Shown here one piece after another: positions 10,248-20,951 of a stretch of DNA of 64,000 nucleotides. Numbering within the stretch: position 1 is the first letter of the stretch; the number at the start of each line of letters is the position of its first letter. A program made the translations under genes and the position numbers. The notes under the pieces were generated by a model that saw nothing but the letters and a program-made list of their open reading frames with translations, ran no database searches and had not been told where the DNA came from. Source of the DNA: Mycolicibacterium insubricum (GTDB lineage: Bacteria; Actinomycetota; Actinomycetes; Mycobacteriales; Mycobacteriaceae); the NCBI RefSeq assembly GCF_010731615.1, contig NZ_AP022618.1:992001-1056000 (forward strand). The letters run 5' to 3'.

Positions 10248-12557
10248 TCAGGCACCCAGCATTGCGCGCAGCATGGACAGCATTTCACTGCGCGATTCCG
10301 CGCCGAGCCGCCGCCGGATCCGCGCCACGTGGTGCTCGACAGTCTTCGCGGAGATGAACAACTGCGCCCCGATGTCGCGATACGGCATGCCCAACAGCAA
10401 GAGTTCGGCCACCTCCCGCTCCCGATCCGACAGGGCCGCCGGCCGCGCCGGCTCCGGGATTCCCGACGGGACCGTACCCGGCTCGGGGTCCTCCGCGGCG
10501 GGAGCGTCGAACTCGTCGGTGTTCTGTTTGAGGTCACGGGCCAGCGCCAGCATGGCCGTCGACACCCGCGGATCGTCGGTGCCCAGGGCGGCCTGGCCGG
10601 TCAGCCGGGTGGCATCCCAGGTCAGCCCGAACTGCGCCAGCCCCCGGGCCGCGGCGGCCACCTCCGCCGGGTCGACCTGACGGGCCAACACCCGCAGCCA
10701 GGCGCGTCCGGCCGCGGCCAGGGCGCGGGCGAAGTCACTGCCGGCCGAGGCGGCGGCCAGCGCCGCGGCGTGCGGGGCCATCGCGTCGGGATTGTTGGCC
10801 AGGATCGCCGCGTGCACCCCGGCCCAGTGCAGCGGCAGCGACCAGGCCGGGGGATCGCCGAGGGCGCCCAGCAGCCCGAACGCCGTCCGCAGCGGATGAC
10901 GCAGCCGGTCGGCCTGGCGCATCCGCACCCCGGCCACCCACAGCTCGCCCAGCGGCAGCAGCGTGAACACGTCCACCGAGTACTCGGCGAGCAGGTCGAC
11001 AGCGACCGAAAAATCCCGGTGCAGCGCCCCGGCGTCGCCGCTGCGCCGCGCGATCCCGGTCCGCAGCGCCGCCGCCCACAGCGCATCGCGCCGGTGCAGC
11101 CCGGTGTGCGGGGCCAGCGCCGCGGCGGCGACGAGGTTCCCGTCGACCAGCCAGGTCCAGGCCGTCAGTAACGCGTGGCGCGGCGCGAACAGTTCGGCCG
11201 GCGCGGCGTCGCGGGACAGCACCCCGCGGGCGCGCGCCGGATCGCCGGAGTGCAGCGCGGCCAGTGCGACGACGGCGGCCGGGTCGTCGGGCAGCGCCAC
11301 CGTCGGCGCCGCGCCGACCGACTGGCCGAACAGGGCCAGCGCGGCGTCGTATCCGGATTCCACGCTGGTGCGCAGCCCGGCCGCCAGGTTGCGCGCGGCC
11401 CGGGCGGCCGAGGTGGGCACCGTCGCCTCGGCGGGTGCCGCGGTGGCCCGCAGCGCGGGCAGGTTCCCGGCGGCCAGTGCGACGACGGCCGCCGCCGCGC
11501 CGACCTCGGGGTCGGTCGCGGTGCCCGGCTCGGTCCCGCGCAGCCAGTCGAACAGTTCGGCGGCCGCAGCAGTGTTCCCGTCGTGACAGGCCACCGCGGC
11601 GGCCACCCGGACGGCGTCGGCGCGGGTGCCCGGGTCGGCCAGCAGCCCGTCGGCCACCGCGGCGGCCGCCGTGCAGTCGCCGGTCAGGGCCAGCGAATCG
11701 GCGAAGACGACGGTCGGATCGCTGGTCCCGGCGGCCAGCGCGGCCCGGTACAACCCGGCGGCCTGCTCGGGATGACCGGCCGTGACGGCGGACGACGCGG
11801 CGGTGCTCAGCCGCTCGGCCAGCCGCGGGTCCCGACGGCCGTGATCGGCCAGGGTGCGGGCCAGCGGCACGCCGAGAGTGCCGTGCGCGAGTTGGGATTC
11901 CAGCAGCGCGCTCTCCACCGCGTGGTGGCGCACCGCGCCGATCACCCCGCTGACCGCCTCGTGCAGCGCCGCGGGTGCGCGCAGCAGCCCGGTGCCGTGC
12001 GCGCGGTCGACGAGCTCGCGCGCCACCGCCGGCTCCAGGTCCAGCGCCGCGGCGATATCGGCCGGGCCGAGGCGGTCGTCGAGGGACAGCAGCGCCAGCG
12101 CGTCGAGCAGCGGTTCGTCGAGGCGGCGCAGCCGGTCGGGGTCGGGTGCACCGCGGGTCGGCAACACCAGCGCGGTCTGCTCGTGTTCCAGCACGTCGGT
12201 GAGCCGGCGCAGCTCCGGGCGCTGGCCCAGCGGCTGGGTGGCGACCACCACGGTTCGGTACGGATCGGCGGCGACGGTCACCAGCGCCGCGAGGGCGCCG
12301 TCGTCGAGCCGGTCGGCGTCATCGATGACCAGCGCCGATCCGCACGGTTCAAATCCCACCTCGGGGCGTACCTGGGTGACGACGGGCACTCCCGCGGCTC
12401 GCAGGCCGTCGCGCACCGCCGCCAGCACGGCGCTCTTCCCACTGCCGATACCCCCGGTGACCAGCAACTTCGCCGGATCCTGCGGATCGCGGAGCAGCTC
12501 GGCCACCCGGTCGGCGGCCCGCGGCGGCAGCTCACCGACGGCCGGATCGGTGATCAC
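10248..12557 (-). CDS. iniR: P-loop ATPase/LuxR-type transcriptional regulator IniR
   Basis: The 769-residue protein has an N-terminal NTPase domain with Walker A 'GGIGSGKS' (residues 35-42) and Walker B 'ALVIDDAD' (about 75-82). A long helical, alanine-rich middle follows, then a C-terminal LuxR helix-turn-helix (about residues 705-769, 'LSDREREVAELLLLGMPYRD'). This is the layout of MalT/LAL regulators, which bind DNA on ATP and inducer binding. It corresponds in position and type to M. tuberculosis Rv0339c, reported as IniR, activator of iniBAC during cell-wall stress. Its GTG start overlaps the stop of the Hsp70-like gene by 3 bases, so the two are cotranscribed. CCCCTAA sites in front of the operon and of iniB are candidate targets. 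Confidence 0.88.
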   Translation of the reverse strand: MITDPAVGELPPRAADRVAELLRDPQDPAKLLVTGGIGSGKSAVLAAVRDGLRAAGVPVVTQVRPEVGFEPCGSALVIDDADRLDDGALAALVTVAADPYRTVVVATQPLGQRPELRRLTDVLEHEQTALVLPTRGAPDPDRLRRLDEPLLDALALLSLDDRLGPADIAAALDLEPAVARELVDRAHGTGLLRAPAALHEAVSGVIGAVRHHAVESALLESQLAHGTLGVPLARTLADHGRRDPRLAERLSTAASSAVTAGHPEQAAGLYRAALAAGTSDPTVVFADSLALTGDCTAAAAVADGLLADPGTRADAVRVAAAVACHDGNTAAAAELFDWLRGTEPGTATDPEVGAAAAVVALAAGNLPALRATAAPAEATVPTSAARAARNLAAGLRTSVESGYDAALALFGQSVGAAPTVALPDDPAAVVALAALHSGDPARARGVLSRDAAPAELFAPRHALLTAWTWLVDGNLVAAAALAPHTGLHRRDALWAAALRTGIARRSGDAGALHRDFSVAVDLLAEYSVDVFTLLPLGELWVAGVRMRQADRLRHPLRTAFGLLGALGDPPAWSLPLHWAGVHAAILANNPDAMAPHAAALAAASAGSDFARALAAAGRAWLRVLARQVDPAEVAAAARGLAQFGLTWDATRLTGQAALGTDDPRVSTAMLALARDLKQNTDEFDAPAAEDPEPGTVPSGIPEPARPAALSDREREVAELLLLGMPYRDIGAQLFISAKTVEHHVARIRRRLGAESRSEMLSMLRAMLGA

Positions 12558-14500
12558 GGGAACAGACGACGCCTGGTCGGCCCCGAAGCCGCACCCCCGG
12601 TATCCGCCGTGGTCTGCGCCGTCGTCGGCGCCGGCGCAGAGGTCGGGGGTGTCGTGGGCGGAGTGGTCGGCGGCGTCGTCGGTGGCGTGGTGGGTGGGGT
12701 CGTGGTCGGTTGGGTGGTGGTCGTCGGCTGCGTCGTGGTGGTCGTCGTAGTGGGCTGAGTTGTCGTCGTGGTCGTTGTCGTCGTCGACTCCGTGGTCGAT
12801 TCGGTGGTGGTGGTCGGCTCCGTCGTGGTGGGCTCGGGGCTGCTCGACGGCGGTGCGGTCGTCGTCGGTGGCGGCACCACCGAGCTGGCCACCGATCCGT
12901 TCTCGTCGGTGTAGGTCAGCGTCGCGCTCTCCTGCGGCTTCAGCGCCGTGGTGAGCACCGAGCCGTTGGGCAGCGTGATCGTCGTGGTGACCGGAGAGTT
13001 GTCCATCTCGCTGCCGGTCAGCGTGATGGCCAGACCCCCGGCCGAGGCCAGCGCGGCCGCCGCGGCGATCCCGAACAACACCGCCGGGCGCCGGTACCAG
13101 CGCAGCGGCGCGGCCGCCGGCTCCGGCTCCTCGGGCGGGGCGTCGAACTGCACCGGCGGGCGGGCACCCGTCGCGCCGACGGGGTAGTCCGGCCCGGAAT
13201 AGGGGACCGGATCCGCGGCGCCGTCGGCATCCTCGGACCAGGCCAGACCGCGCGACGTCGCATCCGGGGCGTCCTCGCCGCCGGCATGCGTCGCCCAGCT
13301 CGCCGGGGCCATCCCGGTGGGCACCTCACCGGCGGCCGGGGCCAGACCCGTCGGCGCGCCGGCCTCGGCGACGGCCTGCGACAACCCGGTCTCCGCGCTC
13401 GCCTCGGCCACCAGGGGAGACAGCCCCGTCGGCGCACCCGCGGCGGCGATCGACGGCCCGGCGCCGTCGATCAGCTGCGGGGGCACCCCGCGCTCGGCGA
13501 GCCACCCGGCCCCGGCAGCGGCGGCCGAACCCGGGTCCGGAGTCGTCACGATCGGTGCCCGCAGCTCCTGCGACAGCCGCTCGGTGACCAGCGGAATCGC
13601 CGCACCGCCGCCGACGGTCGCCACCGCCGACAGCCGATCCGCCGGAATCCTGTTGTCCTGCAGCGCATCTCCGATCTCGTCGAGCAGACCCGCCAGCGGC
13701 TCGGCCAGCAGCGCTTCCAACTCGGCGCGGGTGAACCGCACGTCGGCGGCGCCCTCGGCGGAGATGACCGCGGCGGTGTCGGCCGACAACCGCTCCTTGG
13801 CCGTCCGGCACGCGGCGCGCAGCCGGGTCAGCGCGCCGACGGCGGCAGTGCCCATCGGGTCGGCACCGGCGGCTTGGGACTGCCCGGCCAGCACGGCGCT
13901 GAGCACCCCCTGATCGATCAGGTCACCGGAGAGCGACGAGCGCAGCACCGGGCCGATCGGGCGCATCCCGGCTGCGGCATCGGCCAGGGTCACCGTGGTG
14001 CCGGTGCCGCCCAGGTCCACCAGCACCACCACTCCGCTGCCGGGCAGGCCCGGGGCGTTGCCCAGTGCGGTCAGCGCCGCCGCGTTGTCCCGCACGATCT
14101 CGGTCGGGGCCCCCGAGCCGGACAGTGCGGGCCGGGCCTGTACCTGGGCGCGCAACGCCGACACCGCGGCCGGCCGCCAGTGCGCCGGGACCGCGATCAC
14201 CATTCGCGGTGCGGGGCCGCCGGCGTCGCGGACCAGGGATTCCAGCGCGTCGGCCGCCAGCGTCGCGGCGTCGTGCGACGAGCCGTCGGGCGCGATCATC
14301 GGGACCCGGTCGCCGACCCGGTCGGTGAAACCCCACACCACCACGCCCGGTTCGCTCACCTTCGCGTTCTCCGTGGGCAGGCCCACCTCGGCGGGCCGGT
14401 GGCCGAACAGGGTGAGGACCGAACGCCGCCGCACGGGGGGACGACCGGTCCGGACGGCGACCATATTGGTGGCGCCGATCGACAGCCCGAGGGAATCCAT
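12554..14500 (-). CDS. Hsp70-like membrane protein with Thr/Pro-rich exterior tail
   Basis: The 648-residue product starts 'MDSLGLSIGATNMVAVRTG'. It has an actin/Hsp70-type ATPase fold: a phosphate-1 loop altered to SIGATN, phosphate-2 'VDLGGTGTTVTLAD' and adenosine motif 'VATVGGGAAIPLVTERL'. No Hsp70 substrate-binding domain follows. Instead there is a Pro/Ala-rich linker, one membrane span (about residues 480-500), a short globular part and a tail rich in Thr, Ser and Pro that ends 'TRRRLFP'. It resembles the Rv2264c type of protein in M. tuberculosis (from memory). The ATG at 14500 has GAGGT upstream; longer in-frame extension to 15079 runs through the promoter and another gene and is rejected. 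It is coupled to iniR, suggesting a membrane sensor for that regulator (inference). Confidence 0.8.
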   Translation of the reverse strand: MDSLGLSIGATNMVAVRTGRPPVRRRSVLTLFGHRPAEVGLPTENAKVSEPGVVVWGFTDRVGDRVPMIAPDGSSHDAATLAADALESLVRDAGGPAPRMVIAVPAHWRPAAVSALRAQVQARPALSGSGAPTEIVRDNAAALTALGNAPGLPGSGVVVLVDLGGTGTTVTLADAAAGMRPIGPVLRSSLSGDLIDQGVLSAVLAGQSQAAGADPMGTAAVGALTRLRAACRTAKERLSADTAAVISAEGAADVRFTRAELEALLAEPLAGLLDEIGDALQDNRIPADRLSAVATVGGGAAIPLVTERLSQELRAPIVTTPDPGSAAAAGAGWLAERGVPPQLIDGAGPSIAAAGAPTGLSPLVAEASAETGLSQAVAEAGAPTGLAPAAGEVPTGMAPASWATHAGGEDAPDATSRGLAWSEDADGAADPVPYSGPDYPVGATGARPPVQFDAPPEEPEPAAAPLRWYRRPAVLFGIAAAAALASAGGLAITLTGSEMDNSPVTTTITLPNGSVLTTALKPQESATLTYTDENGSVASSVVPPPTTTAPPSSSPEPTTTEPTTTTESTTESTTTTTTTTTQPTTTTTTTQPTTTTQPTTTPPTTPPTTPPTTPPTTPPTSAPAPTTAQTTADTGGAASGPTRRRLFP

Positions 14501-14548
14501 GGGTACCTCATCCGTTGGCGTTGCGCGGTTGCCGTCCACCCTAGACGT

Positions 14549-14593
14549 ACCCCTAAGGGTGGACAATCCCCTAACCGTACTTCCCCTAAGGGG
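14549..14593. promoter_or_regulatory. Triple CCCCTAA array in the divergent Hsp70-like/Rv0340-like promoter
   Basis: CCCCTAA occurs at 14550-14556, 14568-14574 and 14583-14589. Two copies extend to near-palindromes: ACCCCTAAGGGT (14549-14560) and CCCCTAAGGGG (14583-14593, perfect around one central base). The starts are 18 and 15 bases apart. A second triplet of the same heptamer stands before iniB at 15427-15465. The array is probably the binding site of the locus regulator, with IniR the obvious candidate. Confidence 0.65.
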
Positions 14594-14692
14594 TGCCACG
14601 GGGCGGCGGGGCGCAACCCGATCCCCTCGCAGCTTCCGGCGACCTAGGATTTCGGTGGTAACCCGCTGTGCATCGATTGAACGGAGTCCGTC

Positions 14693-15265
14693 ATGGCAAA
14701 TGAACTGCTGGACTTCGTCATGGGTCTGGTCCGCGACCCGGCCGCCGCCGCGAACTATCACGCCGACCCGGCCAAGGCCATCGCCGATGCGCATCTGACC
14801 GGGGTGACCAGTGCCGATGTCAACAACCTGATTCCCATGGTGTCCGATTCGGTGTCCATGGCGACGCCGGGATTTGGTCCGCCGGGGCTCGACAGCGTCC
14901 CGGTCGGGGGGTTGAACGCGGTGGACAGCAACGTCTGGTCCTCCGGCGCGGCGCACGCCGCCTTCGAGGCGTTCGACGCGCATGTGCCCGGCGTGGTGGC
15001 CGATCAGCTGCACACACCGGTCATCCAGGACCCGGGAGCGGTGTCCGGCGTGCTCGCGGCACCCGTCTCCGCGCTGCACGACGGCGGCGTGCAGCTGCCG
15101 TCGTTCGACTCATTCGACCAGGTGGGCGGCATCGGTACCGCGCTTCCGGACCCGGTGGACGCGCACCCGGCGGACCCGGTCTTCGAGGACTGGGCGCACC
15201 CGGCGCACGACGCCGGCCAGGTCGATCCCGGCCACGGCGGGTTCGACATCTTCGGTCACCAGTGA
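14693..15265 (+). CDS. IniB-N-terminal-domain protein (Rv0340-like)
   Basis: The 190-residue protein opens with a helical domain of about 60 residues ('MANELLDFVMGLVRDPAAAA'...'DVNNLIPMVSDSV') that matches the N-terminal domain of IniB encoded next to it. The rest is low-complexity, rich in Asp, Pro, His and Ala, ending 'GGFDIFGHQ'. It sits where Rv0340 lies in M. tuberculosis. There is no signal peptide and no catalytic motif. The ATG at 14693 has GGAG about 8 bases upstream. It is divergent from the Hsp70-like gene and followed by a strong terminator, so it is its own transcript. Its function is unknown; a structural role in the Ini envelope-stress response is inferred from context. Confidence 0.8.
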   Translation: MANELLDFVMGLVRDPAAAANYHADPAKAIADAHLTGVTSADVNNLIPMVSDSVSMATPGFGPPGLDSVPVGGLNAVDSNVWSSGAAHAAFEAFDAHVPGVVADQLHTPVIQDPGAVSGVLAAPVSALHDGGVQLPSFDSFDQVGGIGTALPDPVDAHPADPVFEDWAHPAHDAGQVDPGHGGFDIFGHQ

Positions 15266-15303
15266 TTCCCCTTGGGGGTGCCTGGGGATAGGCCCGCACA
15301 ACG

Positions 15304-15345
15304 ACGGCCCGACAGCGGAGTACCGCTGCCGGGCCGTCTCTTTTT
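15304..15345 (+). terminator. Intrinsic terminator after the Rv0340-like gene
   Basis: ACGGCCCG (15304-15311) pairs with CGGGCCGT (15330-15337), and CAGCGG (15313-15318) with CCGCTG (15323-15328), around loop AGTA with one mismatch. CTCTTTTT follows immediately. This isolates the gene from iniB. Confidence 0.9.
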
Positions 15346-15426
15346 GCTGCCTGGATACCTCTATTTACCTGCGGTTTCTCCCGTTCTCGGGGATTGTGCA
15401 GCCGGATTCGCAGTGCCCCCAATATG

Positions 15427-15470
15427 CCCCTAATCCCCTAACGTTTGGGCGTGGTACACCCCTAATGGGT
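15427..15470 (+). promoter_or_regulatory. Triple CCCCTAA array upstream of iniB
   Basis: The 307-base gap between the Rv0340-like gene and iniB holds the terminator at 15304 and then CCCCTAA at 15427-15433, 15435-15441 and 15459-15465. The last is within ACCCCTAATGGGT (15458-15470), an ACCC/GGGT inverted repeat. The array lies about 105-145 bases upstream of the iniB start. It mirrors the array at 14549-14593. No other gene is seen in this gap. Confidence 0.65.
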
Positions 15471-15572
15471 GGTGCGGGATGACGGGTGGTAACCCCGTTT
15501 CGACACCGGTTGCGCGGTCATAACGTGTATTTCACAAGCCGAACCCCGGCAAGAGACCCGAAAGGAACTCCC

Positions 15573-16898
15573 ATGAACGTCATCGACTGGATCCTGAACC
15601 TGTTCCGCGACCACAACGCCGCCAGCGCCTTCGTGATGGCCCCCGGCCAGGTCATGACCGACGCCGGTCTGGGCGGTATCTCCCCGGTTCAGCTGGCCTC
15701 GGTCGCCAGCACCGCGGTGCCCGGGCTGATGCTCGGCAGCGACCCGGTGGTCGGCCTGCAGCGCGCGGTGTCGAACTACCACGGCTTCGACAACGGCTAC
15801 GGCTACAACGGGTTCTCCAACGGCTACAGCTACGCACAGCCCGCCGGCTACGCGCCGACCTATGCGCCCAACGTCGCCTCGCCGACCTGGGCGCCGCAGA
15901 ACACCCTCGCCGCGCAGACCGACCTGGCCAGCCACAACTCCACCTCCTTCATGAGCCCGGACCAGTACGCCGGGGCCAACTCTCAGCAGGGCGGCTTCAA
16001 CCTGGGCTTCGGCGACATCACCCTGGGCTCGAAGACCACCGCCAGCAACGGCGCCGCGGTGATCAACGGCAACAACCGCGGTGACATCGTCAGCGGCGAC
16101 GGCGCGGTGCTGGGCAACGGCAACTCCGTCACCAACGGCGACACCTGGGCCGGCGCCGGCGCCAACGTCAACCAGGGCCACGGCGTCCTGCACTCCGTCG
16201 GCAACGACACCAACACCGGCAGCGGCTCGATGATCAAGGGCAACGACGGCCCGGTGCTGCAGAACGTCGACGCCAGCGGCGGCAACGGCGGCGCCGCGGG
16301 CGGCGGCAGTGGTAGCGGCGGCCTGCTGGGCGTCGGGATCGGCAACAGCAGCCACGGCGGCAACGCCGGCGGCGGCGGGATCACCTTCGTCAGCAAGGAC
16401 ACCGGAAACACCGTCGGCGGCGACCAATCACACGTCACCGGCGTCGGCAACTCGACCGCCAACCCGACGCACGTGGTGTCCCAGCCGCACAACACCGTGG
16501 TCAACGACTCCTACAACCCGTCGCACACCACGGCCGTCAGCTCGACCACCAACACCGGGTTCGACAACGGCAACCACGCGGTGCAGCCGACGCTGGGCAG
16601 CCTCGCCGGTCAGCCGGCGGTGGACCACTCCACCGTGCAGCCGGTGCTGGGCAACCACGCGGTCCAGCCGGTGATCGCCGCGCCGAGCCCCCTGCCGGTG
16701 CACAGCACTCAGCCGGTGCTGGGCACCAACCACGGGTACGACGCCAACGCCGGCTACCAGCCGCAGCCGAGCCACTCGGTGTACGACGGCGGGTCGAGCC
16801 ACTCGGTGTTCGGCGGTGCGCATGTCGCCACCCCGGTGGCCGACGCCGGTGGGCACGCCGGCTTGACCGGCAGCGAGCACCACGGTCTGGGTCTGTAG
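15573..16898 (+). CDS. iniB: Isoniazid-inducible protein IniB
   Basis: The 441-residue protein has the conserved N-terminal IniB domain ('MNVIDWILNLFRDHNAASAF', 'GLGGISPVQLASVASTAVPG', residues 1-60). A long Gly/Asn/Ser-rich region of GNG-type repeats follows (about residues 165-285), then a His/Gln/Pro-rich tail with repeated 'QPVLGNHAVQPV' phrases. IniB is made with IniA and IniC in response to cell-wall inhibitors such as isoniazid and ethambutol; its molecular role is unclear. The ATG at 15573 has AAAGGA about 8 bases upstream. The Gly/Asn-rich composition is typical of IniB and should not be read as a PE_PGRS protein. Confidence 0.93.
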   Translation: MNVIDWILNLFRDHNAASAFVMAPGQVMTDAGLGGISPVQLASVASTAVPGLMLGSDPVVGLQRAVSNYHGFDNGYGYNGFSNGYSYAQPAGYAPTYAPNVASPTWAPQNTLAAQTDLASHNSTSFMSPDQYAGANSQQGGFNLGFGDITLGSKTTASNGAAVINGNNRGDIVSGDGAVLGNGNSVTNGDTWAGAGANVNQGHGVLHSVGNDTNTGSGSMIKGNDGPVLQNVDASGGNGGAAGGGSGSGGLLGVGIGNSSHGGNAGGGGITFVSKDTGNTVGGDQSHVTGVGNSTANPTHVVSQPHNTVVNDSYNPSHTTAVSSTTNTGFDNGNHAVQPTLGSLAGQPAVDHSTVQPVLGNHAVQPVIAAPSPLPVHSTQPVLGTNHGYDANAGYQPQPSHSVYDGGSSHSVFGGAHVATPVADAGGHAGLTGSEHHGLGL

Positions 16899-17082: not shown

Positions 17083-18933
17083 GTGACCCAACCGCAGGAC
17101 CGGCGGCCCGTCGCGGTGATCGTCGAACTCATCGACCACACCGCCGCCATCGCCGCGCTGCACGACCGCCGCGACCTAGCCGAGCGGCTGGCCGCGGCCA
17201 AGGTCCGGATCAGCGACCCGCAGATCCGGGTGGTCATCGCCGGGCAGCTCAAACAGGGCAAGAGCCAGCTGCTCAACTCACTGCTGAACCTGCCGGTCGC
17301 CCGGGTCGGCGACGACGAGACCACCGCGCTGATCACCGTCGTCAGCTACGCCGACCAGCCGATCGCACGACTCGTCGTGGCACCCAGCCTGGGGGCGGCA
17401 CCCGGTGTCCCCGAACCCGGGGCACCCGAGTACATCGACATTCCCATCGACGCCATCCGTACCGACCTGCGCCGGGCCCCGATCGCCCGCGGCCGCGAGG
17501 TACTGCGAGTGGAGGTCGGCGTGCCCAGCCCGCTGCTGCGCGGCGGCCTCACCTTTATCGATACCCCCGGCGTCGGCGGGCACGGCCAGCCGCACCTGTC
17601 GGCGACCCTGGGGCTGCTGCCCGACGCCGACGCCATGCTGATGATCAGCGACACCAGCCAGGAGTTCACCGAACCGGAGATGCGGTTCCTGCGGCAAGGC
17701 CAGCAACTGTGCCCGGTGACCGCCGTCATTGCCACCAAGACCGACCTGTACCCGCACTGGCGGGCGATCGTCGCGGCCAACACCGCGCACCTGCAGCGCG
17801 CCGGTGTCGACGTGCCGCTGATCCCCGCGTCGTCGCTGCTGCGCAGCCACGCGGTGTCCACCAACGACGCCGAACTCAACACCGAATCCAACTTCCCGGC
17901 CATCGTGTCGTTCCTGTCCGAACGGGTGCTGTCCCGAGAAACCGACCGGGTGCGCGACGCGGTACTGGCCGAAATCGCTTCGACGGCAGAACATCTCACC
18001 CTGGCGGTGGATGCCGAGCTGGCCGCGCTCGACGACCCGGACAGTGTCCGCCGGATCACCGAGGACCTGGAGCGACGCCAACAGGACGCCTCCGACGCGC
18101 TGGCGCACACCGCACTGTGGCAGCAGGTGCTCAACGACGGCATCGCCGATCTCACCGGCGACGTCGACCATGACCTGCGTGCCCGGTTCCGGGAGATCGT
18201 CAGCGACGCCGAAGCGGTGATCGACAGCTGCGACCCGACTGTGCACTGGGCCGAAATCGGTGCGCAGGTGCAGGATTCGGTGGCCACCGCCGTCGGCGAC
18301 AACTTCGTCTTCGCCTACCGGCGCGCCGAGGCGCTGGCCGCCGAGGTCGCCCGCACCTTCACCGAGGTCGGGTTCGACGGCGTGGACATCCCCGAGGTCA
18401 ACGCACGGGACATGGGTGCGGAATTCACCGGGCTCAAGGCCATCACCCGGCTGGAATCCAAACCGATCGGCTTCGGGCACAAGGCCGTCACCGGCTTGCG
18501 CGGCTCCTACGGCGGTGTGCTGATGTTCGGCATGCTGAGCTCGGTGGTCGGCCTGGGCATGTTCAACCCGCTGTCGCTGGGCGCCGGTCTGCTGTTGGGC
18601 CGCAAGGCCTACCGGGAGGACATGGAGAACCGGATGATGCGGGTGCGCAGCGAGGCCAAGACCAACCTGCGCAAATTCGTCGACGACGTGTCGTTCGTGG
18701 TCGGCAAGGAGTCCCGGGACCGGCTCAAGACCATCCAGCGCCAGCTGCGCGACCACTACCGCGATATCGCCAACGAGACCGCCCGCTCACTCAACGAGTC
18801 ACTGCAGGCGACGCTGAACGCGGCCCGGCTGGAGGAGAACGAGCGCATCACCCGGGTCAACGAACTGTCCCGTCAGCGCAACATCCTCGGCCAGGTCAGC
18901 GACAACGTCGTCAACCTGCGGGCGCCACGGTAA
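17083..18933 (+). CDS. iniA: Dynamin-like GTPase IniA
   Basis: The 616-residue protein has a GTPase domain with P-loop 'GQLKQGKS' (54-61), the G2 threonines in 'DDETTALITVV', G3 'DTPG' (160-163) and G4 'TKTD' (218-221). Long helical regions flank a hydrophobic hairpin ('GGVLMFGMLSSVVGLGMFNP') that fits a membrane paddle. M. tuberculosis IniA (about 640 residues) is a bacterial dynamin-like protein that remodels membranes and contributes to drug tolerance. The GTG at 17083 has AGAGG about 10 bases upstream. The last 23 bases overlap the convergent gene on the minus strand. Confidence 0.93.
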   Translation: MTQPQDRRPVAVIVELIDHTAAIAALHDRRDLAERLAAAKVRISDPQIRVVIAGQLKQGKSQLLNSLLNLPVARVGDDETTALITVVSYADQPIARLVVAPSLGAAPGVPEPGAPEYIDIPIDAIRTDLRRAPIARGREVLRVEVGVPSPLLRGGLTFIDTPGVGGHGQPHLSATLGLLPDADAMLMISDTSQEFTEPEMRFLRQGQQLCPVTAVIATKTDLYPHWRAIVAANTAHLQRAGVDVPLIPASSLLRSHAVSTNDAELNTESNFPAIVSFLSERVLSRETDRVRDAVLAEIASTAEHLTLAVDAELAALDDPDSVRRITEDLERRQQDASDALAHTALWQQVLNDGIADLTGDVDHDLRARFREIVSDAEAVIDSCDPTVHWAEIGAQVQDSVATAVGDNFVFAYRRAEALAAEVARTFTEVGFDGVDIPEVNARDMGAEFTGLKAITRLESKPIGFGHKAVTGLRGSYGGVLMFGMLSSVVGLGMFNPLSLGAGLLLGRKAYREDMENRMMRVRSEAKTNLRKFVDDVSFVVGKESRDRLKTIQRQLRDHYRDIANETARSLNESLQATLNAARLEENERITRVNELSRQRNILGQVSDNVVNLRAPR

Positions 18934-19375
18934 GGCCACCCGGGGTCACGGTCCGGGTCAGGTTGATCCGCGGCCGTTGATGCGTGGTCTCGGAGCTGCT
19001 CGTCGTCGTGGTCGTGGTCGTGGTCGTGGTCGACGACGTTGTTGAGGTGGTGGTCTCGGACTCCGAGGTGGTCTCGGACTCCGACGATTCGGTGCTCGTC
19101 TCGTTGGGGGCGGCGACCTCGCTGGTGGAGATCGGCACGCTGGTGCTGTAAGTGGTGGTCTCCGGCGACGGGGTGATGAGCGACGGGGTGGTGGAGGAGA
19201 CCGTCGATGCGATCACCCGCTGCGGCGGGGGAGGCGGCGCGTCCCACTCGTCGGACATCCGCACGACCAGCGCGAACAGCGTCACCACGACGATCAGCGC
19301 CAGGCCGCCGGCGGCGAACACCGCGGTTTGGGTCTGGTACCAGGGGCCCTCGTCGTCGTCCACGGCTCTCGACAT
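18911..19375 (-). CDS. Thr/Ser-rich single-span membrane protein lying between iniA and iniC
   Basis: The 154-residue protein starts 'MSRAVDDDEGPWYQTQTAVF', has one membrane span (residues about 18-38) and then an exterior tail with long Thr/Ser runs. It ends in a short basic section ('HQRPRINLTRTVTPGG'). There is no lipobox and no enzymatic motif. The layout resembles the gene at 20992-21678 and the C-terminal part of the Hsp70-like protein. It is encoded antisense, overlaps the iniA 3' end by 23 bases, and its start is 94 bases from the divergent iniC start. An in-frame extension to 19477 would cover the iniC start and is rejected. Confidence 0.7.
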   Translation of the reverse strand: MSRAVDDDEGPWYQTQTAVFAAGGLALIVVVTLFALVVRMSDEWDAPPPPPQRVIASTVSSTTPSLITPSPETTTYSTSVPISTSEVAAPNETSTESSESETTSESETTTSTTSSTTTTTTTTTTSSSETTHQRPRINLTRTVTPGGLTVAPAG

Positions 19376-19469
19376 TAGTTGACCGGACCGAGGCCGACGG
19401 CGCGCACAGCGAAACCCAGGCTCGCACGCGCCGTCGACGCCGGGCCGACACCGTAAACTCGCAACCGCA

Positions 19470-20951
19470 ATGAGCACCAGCGATCAGGTGCGCGCCATCC
19501 TGGCCGCGACAACCCGTGCCTACCGGAGCGACCCGGCCTACCGGGGGCGTGACGGTCTGTTCGCCGAACTGGACCGGCTGTCCTGGCAGCTCAACCAGCC
19601 CATCCGCATCGCGCTGGCCGGCACCCTCAAGGCCGGCAAATCGACGCTGGTCAACGCGCTGGTCGGGGAGACGATCGCGCCGACCGACGCGACCGAGGCC
19701 ACCCGCATCGTTACTTGGTTCCGCCACGGGCCCACCCCGAAGGTCACCGCCGTCGGGTACGACGGGCGCCGCACCCACCTGCCGATCATCCGCGCCGACG
19801 GGCTCAGCTTCGACTTCGGTGCGCTCGACGCCGCGGCGGTCAGCGTCCTGGACGTCGAATGGCCGGCCACCGAGCTGATCGGCGCCAGCATCATCGACAC
19901 GCCGGGCACCTCGTCGCTGAACGCCGACGTCTCCCAGCGCACCCTGGCTCTGTTGGTACCCGACGACGGCGTGCCCCGGGTGGACGCGGTGGTGTTCCTG
20001 CTGCGCACCCTGAATGCCGCCGACATCGCGCTGCTGACCCAGATCGGTTCGTTGGTCGGCGGATCGGCCGGTGCGCTCGGCGTGATCGGGGTGGCCTCAC
20101 GCGCCGACGAGATCGGGTCCGGCCGCATCGACGCCATGCTCTCTGCCCGCGACGTCGCCGCGCGGTTCACCGCCGAGATGGACAAGACCGGGATCTGCCA
20201 GGCCGTCGTCCCGGTGTCCGGGCTGCTGGCGCTGACCGCGCGGACCCTGCGCCAGGGCGAGTTCATCGCCCTGGAGAAGCTGGCCGGCGTCGAGGCCACG
20301 GTGCTGAACAAGGCCATGCTGAGCGTGGATCGATTTGTCCGCGAAGATGATTCACTGCCGGTGGACCCCGAGACGCGGGCGGCGCTACTGGACCGGTTCG
20401 GCATGTTCGGTATCCGCATCGCCATCACACTGCTGCGCGCCGGGATCACCGACTCGGTGGCGCTGGCCGACGAACTGCTGGAACGCAGCGGACTGGTCGC
20501 GCTGCGCGACGTCATCGACCAGCAGTTCGCCCAGCGCTCCGAGCTGCTCAAGGCGCACACCGCGCTGCTCGCGCTGCGACGGCTGGTGTCGGACAACCCG
20601 TTTCACGCCACCGCCGCGGTGATTGCCGACATCGACCCGCTGCTGGCCGACACCCACGCCTTCGAGGAGCTGCGCCTGCTGTCCCAGTTGCGTTCGCGAT
20701 CAACCACATTGAACGACGACGAGGTGGCCTCGCTGCGGCGGATCATCGGCGGATCGGGCACCGACGCCGCCAGCCGGCTGGGTCTGACCCCCGACGTGCC
20801 CTACGACGGCCCGCGGGCCGCACTGGCCGCCGTCGGGCGCTGGCGCCGCCGCGCCGAGCATCCGCTCAACGATCCGTTCACCACCCGGGCGTGCCGGGCC
20901 GCAGTGCGCAGCGCCGAGGCACTGGTCGCCGACTACCGCGCGCGCGGTTAG
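19470..20951 (+). CDS. iniC: Dynamin-like GTPase IniC
   Basis: The 493-residue protein has the P-loop 'GTLKAGKS' (51-58), G3 'DTPG' (143-146) and a G4-like 'SRADE'. Helical regions follow without an obvious membrane hairpin. IniC is the partner of IniA in the isoniazid-inducible locus. In M. tuberculosis iniA and iniC are adjacent and cotranscribed. Here they are separated by an opposite-strand gene and a 94-base divergent gap, so iniC needs its own promoter. The ATG at 19470 has no clear ribosome-binding site. Confidence 0.92.
   Translation: MSTSDQVRAILAATTRAYRSDPAYRGRDGLFAELDRLSWQLNQPIRIALAGTLKAGKSTLVNALVGETIAPTDATEATRIVTWFRHGPTPKVTAVGYDGRRTHLPIIRADGLSFDFGALDAAAVSVLDVEWPATELIGASIIDTPGTSSLNADVSQRTLALLVPDDGVPRVDAVVFLLRTLNAADIALLTQIGSLVGGSAGALGVIGVASRADEIGSGRIDAMLSARDVAARFTAEMDKTGICQAVVPVSGLLALTARTLRQGEFIALEKLAGVEATVLNKAMLSVDRFVREDDSLPVDPETRAALLDRFGMFGIRIAITLLRAGITDSVALADELLERSGLVALRDVIDQQFAQRSELLKAHTALLALRRLVSDNPFHATAAVIADIDPLLADTHAFEELRLLSQLRSRSTTLNDDEVASLRRIIGGSGTDAASRLGLTPDVPYDGPRAALAAVGRWRRRAEHPLNDPFTTRACRAAVRSAEALVADYRARG

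What the first reader, a model, noticed from the sequence alone, without database searches (positions are those of the whole stretch)
14549..15470. Matching CCCCTAA triplets in front of the Hsp70-like/iniR operon, the Rv0340-like gene and iniB
Seen: CCCCTAA occurs three times at 14550-14589 and three times at 15427-15465, with several copies inside near-palindromes (ACCCCTAAGGGT, CCCCTAAGGGG, ACCCCTAATGGGT). The first array lies in a divergent promoter. The heptamer is unlikely to cluster by chance in two short gaps. Inference: these are sites of one regulator, most likely IniR, which would then control its own operon as well as iniB.
Basis: partly seen in the sequence, partly recalled or inferred. 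Interest (0 to 1): 0.75.

Follow-up and report, generated by a model that had tools for sequence, protein, structure and literature searches.

The report
Operator boxes of the iniBAC regulon
Short repeated DNA words in front of two mycobacterial cell-wall-stress genes are very probably the landing sites of the regulator IniR; they keep a fixed layout in the related genomes examined, so the switch can now be tested directly.

Summary
In detail: six CCCCTAA, all on the + strand, three at 14550-14589 and three at 15427-15465. The genome has only 31 copies, and no other same-strand pair with a gap of up to 30 bp. In 53 Mycobacterium ini loci, exact boxes precede iniB* (Rv0340 family) in 52 and iniB in 50; in the 330 bp before these genes 208 copies are on the coding strand, 0 on the other. 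Of 28 loci from other genera 25 have one. The conserved box is asymmetric, ANCCCCTAAYG; the near-palindromes are incidental. Boxes stand at fixed offsets (-33/-34, -48, -58, -66) from a -35-like element that begins 28 bp before a TANNNT hexamer. All nine unlinked 8-bp-spaced pairs examined in Mycobacterium precede iniB-family genes. Best reading: MalT-like IniR boxes activating iniB*, iniB and iniB paralogues. That IniR binds them is inferred, supported by a published IniR ChIP peak before iniBAC. Control of the divergent Hsp70-like/iniR operon is possible but not shown; published RNA-seq in M. tuberculosis speaks against induction of iniR.

The parts
14550..14556 (+). box 1 of array 1, CCCCTAA (offset -67 from the -35-like element)
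14568..14574 (+). box 2 of array 1 (offset -49)
14583..14589 (+). box 3 of array 1 (offset -34)
14617..14624 (+). -35-like element CCCGATCC of the iniB* promoter (CACCGATC in 46 of 92 anchored promoters of the genus)
   Evidence: role inferred
14645..14650 (+). presumed -10 TAGGAT of iniB*, starting 28 bp after the first base of the -35-like element
   Evidence: role inferred; not found by the consensus scan
14538..14566 (-). presumed promoter of the Hsp70-like/iniR operon: TTGTCC (14566-14561), 17 bp, TAGGGT (14543-14538); box 1 lies in its spacer
   Evidence: read, inference; the consensus scan found no sigma-70 promoter
14693..15265 (+). iniB* (Rv0340 family, IniB N-terminal domain)
   Evidence: NF038176 174.1 bits (cut-off 100), NF038175 71.5 (40)
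15427..15433 (+). box 1 of array 2 (offset -66)
15435..15441 (+). box 2 of array 2 (offset -58), 8 bp after box 1
15459..15465 (+). box 3 of array 2 (offset -34; mostly degenerate in relatives)
15493..15500 (+). -35-like element CCCCGTTT of the iniB promoter
   Evidence: role inferred
15521..15526 (+). presumed -10 TAACGT of iniB (in conserved CATAACGT)
   Evidence: role inferred; not found by the consensus scan
15573..16898 (+). iniB
   Evidence: IniB_NTERM NF038175 60.1 bits (cut-off 40)
17083..18933 (+). iniA, dynamin-like; best PDB match is IniA 6j72
19470..20951 (+). iniC, dynamin-like
   Evidence: position
12554..14500 (-). Hsp70-like gene, first gene of the presumed iniR operon
   Evidence: PF00012
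10248..12557 (-). iniR, ATPase/LuxR-type regulator
   Evidence: NF038181 892.7 bits (cut-off 750); GerE PF00196

Best explanation
CCCCTAA (full form ANCCCCTAAYG) is the DNA box of IniR, the STAND ATPase with a LuxR-type HTH encoded next door. Two or three boxes stand in the same direction at fixed distances upstream of the core promoters of iniB* and of iniBAC (and of unlinked iniB paralogues and some Hsp70-like genes in relatives). On envelope stress, active IniR oligomers would bind the boxes cooperatively and recruit RNA polymerase at a weak promoter, as MalT does. Shown here: the boxes, their direction, register and conservation, and their link to iniB-family genes. Published: IniR ChIP peak upstream of iniBAC, loss of induction without IniR, IniR multimers. 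Inferred: that IniR binds these boxes, cooperative binding, and which positions contact polymerase.
For: Only 31 copies in the genome, six of them here. Array 1 in 52 and array 2 in 50 of 53 Mycobacterium ini loci; 208 coding-strand copies to 0. Box columns 96-97% identical against 53-54% for the rest of the gaps. Register: 88 of 103 gaps have a -35-like word with TANNNT starting exactly at +28; exact boxes at -33 (46), -48 (38), -66 (36), -58 (23) among 92 anchored promoters. All 9 unlinked 8-bp-spaced pairs examined in Mycobacterium precede iniB-family genes, 7 of 9 with the full -66/-58/0/+28 layout. Pair pattern in 142 of 146 genomes with IniR and 1 of 52 without. 25 of 28 loci of other genera carry a box; KTVEHH of the HTH is in 81 of 81 aligned IniR copies, SAKTVEHH in 77. 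Published ChIP peak, IniR dependence and multimers (PMC5760070). M. tuberculosis has two boxes in front of iniR.
Against: No binding data on the boxes themselves. The co-occurrence with IniR is confounded: none of the 52 genomes without IniR has IniA (the same query finds IniA in 5 of 5 IniR-positive genomes) or a match to an iniB-paralogue N-terminus. Published RNA-seq names iniBAC alone as IniR-dependent in M. tuberculosis and the text does not mention Rv0340, whereas boxes precede iniB*. Two other-genus loci with IniR (L066, L067) and one Mycobacterium locus (L138) have no exact box (L080 ends at a contig end). A consensus scan found no sigma-70 promoter in 14400-15700 on either strand, so the -35/-10 roles rest on conservation alone. 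The M. tuberculosis iniB promoter itself was not available here.
Confidence: 0.83

Rival explanations
1. The boxes belong to another regulator of iniBAC (MtrA, HpoR, InbR, Lsr2 or an unknown one).
For: Regulators reported to act on iniBAC: MtrA (EMSA; PMC2945938, passages), HpoR (EMSA; PMC13413693, passages), InbR (expression; PMC4564863, passages); Lsr2 was seen only as a reference title. The locus is lost as a block, so co-occurrence does not single out IniR.
Against: The published MtrA words (CACGCCG, CACGAGG, GTCACAGCG) and HpoR half-sites (CAGAC, TGTCTG) are absent from both gaps. InbR's peak lies downstream of iniBAC. IniR has a ChIP peak directly upstream and induction is lost on its deletion. 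In the own genome the paired boxes are confined to the ini locus, and 9 of 16 unlinked pairs fetched elsewhere in the genus, all those with 8-bp spacing, precede iniB-family genes. Lsr2 and InbR sites were not tested.
Confidence: 0.1
2. Array 1 is also (or mainly) an autoregulatory site that sets transcription of the divergent Hsp70-like/iniR operon.
For: Array 1 overlaps the presumed divergent promoter. A minus-strand -10-like word lies 67-70 bp from the last box in 36 of 52 Mycobacterium loci. In M. tuberculosis the boxes lie at -42 to -48 and -58 to -64 from the mapped iniR start site.
Against: Box direction is always towards iniB*. In L101 and L043 the first box is only about 19 and 23 bp from the estimated start codon of the divergent gene, which makes upstream activation of that gene unlikely there. 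EMB/INH did not raise iniR and only iniBAC changed in the mutant.
Confidence: 0.35
3. The TTAGGGG runs matter as G-quadruplex DNA, not as protein boxes.
For: The M. tuberculosis sequence in front of Rv0339c is printed as a putative G-quadruplex (PMC5515968).
Against: A G4 pattern with loops up to 15 occurs in 27 of 52 array-1 gaps and with loops up to 7 in 2 of 52, while the exact box is in all 52. A G4 does not explain the invariant TAA, the A/YG flanks, one direction and the register.
Confidence: 0.03
4. The two arrays are alike only because iniB* and iniB are paralogues that carried one ancestral promoter along.
For: Both proteins have the IniB N-terminal domain, and unlinked iniB paralogues carry the same promoter.
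Against: As an account of origin this may be true, but it does not explain 96-97% identity of the boxes in gaps that are otherwise 53-54% alike, nor boxes before Hsp70-like genes.
Confidence: 0.05

Closest known systems
MalT and MalT boxes of E. coli (STAND activator)
   Same: STAND ATPase with C-terminal DNA-binding domain; boxes upstream of target promoters; multimerisation allows cooperative binding (PMC4381067, passages)
   Different: MalT box is GGGGA(T/G)GAGG with its end at about -35 (PMC7567727, passages); here the box is ANCCCCTAAYG and the nearest exact one starts 33-34 bp upstream of the -35-like element
MalT of Actinoplanes
   Same: MalT-like regulator with a conserved promoter motif in an actinobacterium
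   Different: palindrome TCATCC-5-GGATGA overlapping -35 (PMC7567727, passages); here direct asymmetric boxes
IniR/iniBAC of M. tuberculosis and M. marinum
   Same: same locus order and regulator family; IniR binds in front of iniBAC (PMC5760070)
   Different: no DNA motif was found in that paper's text (term search: 'binding site' 0, 'motif' 1, in the reference list; its supplements were not seen) and its regulon was iniBAC alone; the boxes predict iniB* and iniB paralogues too

Membership tests
IniR (NF038181) | score above the curated cut-off of the IniR model | tested here: met
   892.7 bits against 750
IniR (NF038181) | C-terminal LuxR-type HTH | tested here: met
   PF00196 at residues 708-762, E 1.5e-14
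STAND/MalT-type regulator | N-terminal ATPase domain | tested here: inconclusive
   Pfam gave no ATPase hit; a Walker-A-like GGIGSGKS is visible in the translation
IniR operon layout | iniR separated from iniBAC by iniB* (Rv0340 family) | tested here: met
IniR operator | box bound by IniR | not testable with these tools
   needs footprint or ChIP summit; the published ChIP peak is upstream of iniBAC
MalT box | GGA(T/G)GA core at -35 | tested here: not met
   GGA[TG]GA occurs once in each gap, on opposite strands and at unrelated positions; so this is not a MalT box, though it may work like one
Palindromic LuxR/NarL-type operator | inverted repeat conserved | tested here: not met
   GGG arm in 37 of 167 boxes

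The most novel reading that the evidence does not exclude
IniR reads a strict directional promoter grammar. Boxes stand about three helical turns apart (0, -33, -66), and the -35-like element (CCCCGATG, CCCCGTTT or CACCGATC) is itself a variant IniR box, so that an IniR filament is built up from -35 outwards, as in MalT promoters. The regulon is the iniB family wherever it lies, plus Hsp70-like genes, not iniBAC alone.
Probability: 0.45. Interest if true: 0.68.

Novelty: new member of a known kind. Interest (0 to 1): 0.56.

Why it matters
iniBAC is a classic reporter of cell-wall stress in mycobacteria, and in the text of the paper on its regulator that was read here no DNA motif was found. 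A defined box and register make the switch testable base by base, allow targets to be predicted in Mycobacterium genomes, and suggest that IniR controls more (iniB*, iniB paralogues, Hsp70-like genes) than reported.

Tried and rejected
Palindromic operator: rejected, the right arm is not conserved. G-quadruplex: rejected as main function. MtrA, HpoR and MalT words: not found, or not placed consistently. A few were named by matching contig lengths (for example 5201667 bases, [Mycobacterium] wendilense; 6103712 bases, Mycolicibacterium litorale).

Pairs that do not fit: L086 and L144 are chance pairs in coding sequence (by reading); L147, L149 and L151 show no iniB-like gene. L091 (another genus) has an 8-bp pair without ini gene hits, and L092-L095 and L097-L099 gave no ini hit. 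G073 has five pairs without a full IniR and was not followed up. AspC was tried as a way to identify an M. tuberculosis genome and failed; no one-contig 4.4-Mb genome with IniR is among the listed rows of the 396 surveyed.

Not seen: Alland et al. 2000 on the iniBAC promoter (not held), so an earlier description of the motif there cannot be excluded. Searches for the motif or for IniR binding in print. The only relevant printed occurrence recognised is the G4 table. Of the 59 papers only 20 were listed, and of these none was opened; of the 27 only 12 were listed, and of these only PMC5515968 was opened. Papers seen as passages only and not otherwise used: PMC6435705, PMC5818527.

Full report
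Observation. The window holds six CCCCTAA, at 14550, 14568, 14583, 15427, 15435 and 15459, all on the + strand. None is found elsewhere in the 64 kb. The genome (one contig, 4,577,045 bases) has 31 copies in all against 290 of the reversed control word, and two copies on one strand with a gap of up to 30 bp occur only in these two places. From the density of the other 25 copies about 1e-7 same-strand triples within 40 bp would be expected per genome.

The locus. IniR (10248-12557, -) scores 892.7 bits with the NCBIfam IniR model (cut-off 750) and has a GerE HTH. The Hsp70-like gene (12554-14500, -) precedes it. On the + strand follow iniB* (14693-15265, Rv0340 family and IniB N-terminal domain), iniB (from 15573, IniB N-terminal domain) and the dynamin-like iniA and iniC. 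Relatives whose IniR bears an organism name are almost all called Mycobacterium or Mycolicibacterium, so the genus g1 of the genome surveys is taken to be Mycobacterium in the wide sense.

Conservation. Twelve same-genus IniR loci were fetched first and 40 more by hand from the 146 IniR-positive genomes. The choice was for contigs long enough, and three genomes without the pair pattern (G230, G280, G296) were included on purpose. With the window this makes 53 loci. Exact boxes stand before iniB* in 52 and before iniB in 50. The exceptions are L138 (rearranged, no iniB*, no box), L132 (only degenerate boxes before iniB) and L121 (it has a pair near the end of the fetched stretch, where no iniB hit was scored). 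In the 330 bp before iniB* and iniB the exact word occurs 208 times on the coding strand and never on the other. Box columns are 97.2% and 95.9% identical between species; the rest of the gaps is 54.0% and 52.9% identical. Of 28 loci from other genera and families (fetched from the better IniR matches), 25 have at least one box in the same direction between iniR and iniA; L066 and L067 have none and L080 ends at a contig end.

The box. Over 167 Mycobacterium boxes not followed by a second box at 8 bp, the flanks are A at -2 (75%), T or C at +7 (92%) and G at +8 (81%). The GGG arm that would make a palindrome follows 37 of 167. The box is therefore directional: ANCCCCTAAYG.

The promoter grammar. 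Downstream of the boxes lies a conserved element, CACCGATC before iniB*, CCCCGTTT before iniB, mostly CCCCGATG in other families. In 91 of 103 Mycobacterium gaps such a word was recognised, and in 88 of 103 a TANNNT hexamer starts exactly 28 bp after its first base. Among 92 anchored promoters exact boxes start at -33 (46), -48 (38), -66 (36), -58 (23) or -65 (16) from that element. In the window the offsets are -67/-49/-34 and -66/-58/-34, with TANNNT at +28 in both. Boxes thus lie upstream of the presumed core promoter, where an activator would stand. A plain sigma-70 consensus scan of 14400-15700 found no promoter on either strand; a weak, activator-dependent promoter would fit that, but the scan gives no support.

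Targets beyond the two gaps. From the listed part of the pattern searches (the list was cut), 16 pairs in Mycobacterium that by position are not at the ini locus were fetched. All nine with 8-bp spacing precede a gene with an IniB-type N-terminus (L081-L085, L141, L142, L148, L150), and seven of these nine show the full -66/-58/0/+28 layout; in L081 and L082 the -35-like element was not recognised. The other seven do not: L086 and L144 lie in coding sequence, L143, L145 and L146 lie before a response regulator with another geometry, and L147 and L149 show nothing. In G107, G132 and G030 a pair lies before a second Hsp70-like gene and points to it; in G140 a pair lies at the same place and was not examined further.

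Co-occurrence. Of 198 Mycobacterium genomes, the pair pattern is in 142 of 146 with IniR (E at most 1e-30) and in 1 of 52 without; the table was made by hand (Fisher p 2e-41). The four are G220 (IniR with a stop), G230, G280 and G296; the one is G243, whose pair (L151) has no iniB-like gene near it. This does not single out IniR: none of those 52 genomes has IniA (0 of 53 searched, the 53rd being G220; the same query finds IniA in 5 of 5 IniR-positive genomes) or a match to an iniB-paralogue N-terminus (0 of 52, with 3 of 3 positive controls found). It does show that regulator, boxes and iniB family are kept or lost together.

Regulator. Boot et al. 2017 (PMC5760070; abstract, sections 10, 11, 12, 16 and 17 and search passages seen; supplements not) report a strong IniR ChIP peak directly in front of iniBAC in M. 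tuberculosis, loss of iniBAC induction without IniR, and IniR multimers; the passages found no binding motif. KTVEHH of the HTH is in 81 of 81 aligned IniR copies and SAKTVEHH in 77 (L048, L075, L077 and L078 differ), inside and outside the genus, which fits one box across families. M. tuberculosis has the boxes too: a table of putative G-quadruplexes (PMC5515968; passages and section 6 seen) prints 60 bases ending at -14 from the Rv0339c start site, which hold two boxes, 16 bp apart, at -64 to -58 and -48 to -42 by my count.

Autoregulation. Array 1 overlaps the presumed divergent promoter of the Hsp70-like/iniR operon; a minus-strand -10-like word lies 67-70 bp from the last box in 36 of 52 loci, not in the window; and in M. 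tuberculosis the boxes lie at a regulatory distance from the iniR start. But the boxes point the other way, and EMB or INH did not raise iniR and only iniBAC changed in the mutant. I rate control of iniR itself as open (about one in three).

Mechanism. MalT, the nearest well-known STAND activator, multimerises and binds its boxes cooperatively (PMC4381067, passages); its box is GGGGA(T/G)GAGG at about -35 (PMC7567727, passages). IniR would work alike with another box and register. Whether the -35-like element is itself a variant box (CCCCGATG resembles CCCCTAATG) is a guess that a footprint would settle.

Verdict. Observation confirmed; one-regulator reading well supported with IniR the likeliest; palindromes incidental; autoregulation open. 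A new operator of a known regulator, of good use to the field.

Noticed in passing
L143, L145, L146 (about position 2000 in each): A conserved CACCCCTAAGGGGGGTG-N-ACACCCCTAAG element just before (ORF start 25 bp after the last word) a 222-aa response-regulator-like gene, unlinked to the ini locus; other geometry, perhaps that regulator's own operator.
   Followed up: partly
window 18911-19477: A Ser/Thr-rich ORF of 188 aa on the minus strand fills the gap between iniA and iniC; the gap is short in L041 but about 500 bp in L049, L051 and L052.
   Followed up: no
G073 (another genus): C2:170802, C5:72254, C12:442969, C41:56341, C42:289832: Five CCCCTAA pairs in a genome without a full IniR match.
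   Followed up: no
L087-L089, about position 920-1020: Second Hsp70-like gene downstream of iniR with its own box pair 14 bp apart, directed to it; L100 has a single box at that place.
   Followed up: partly
L066, L067: IniR orthologues whose loci have no exact box, only one CCCCTTA.
   Followed up: partly
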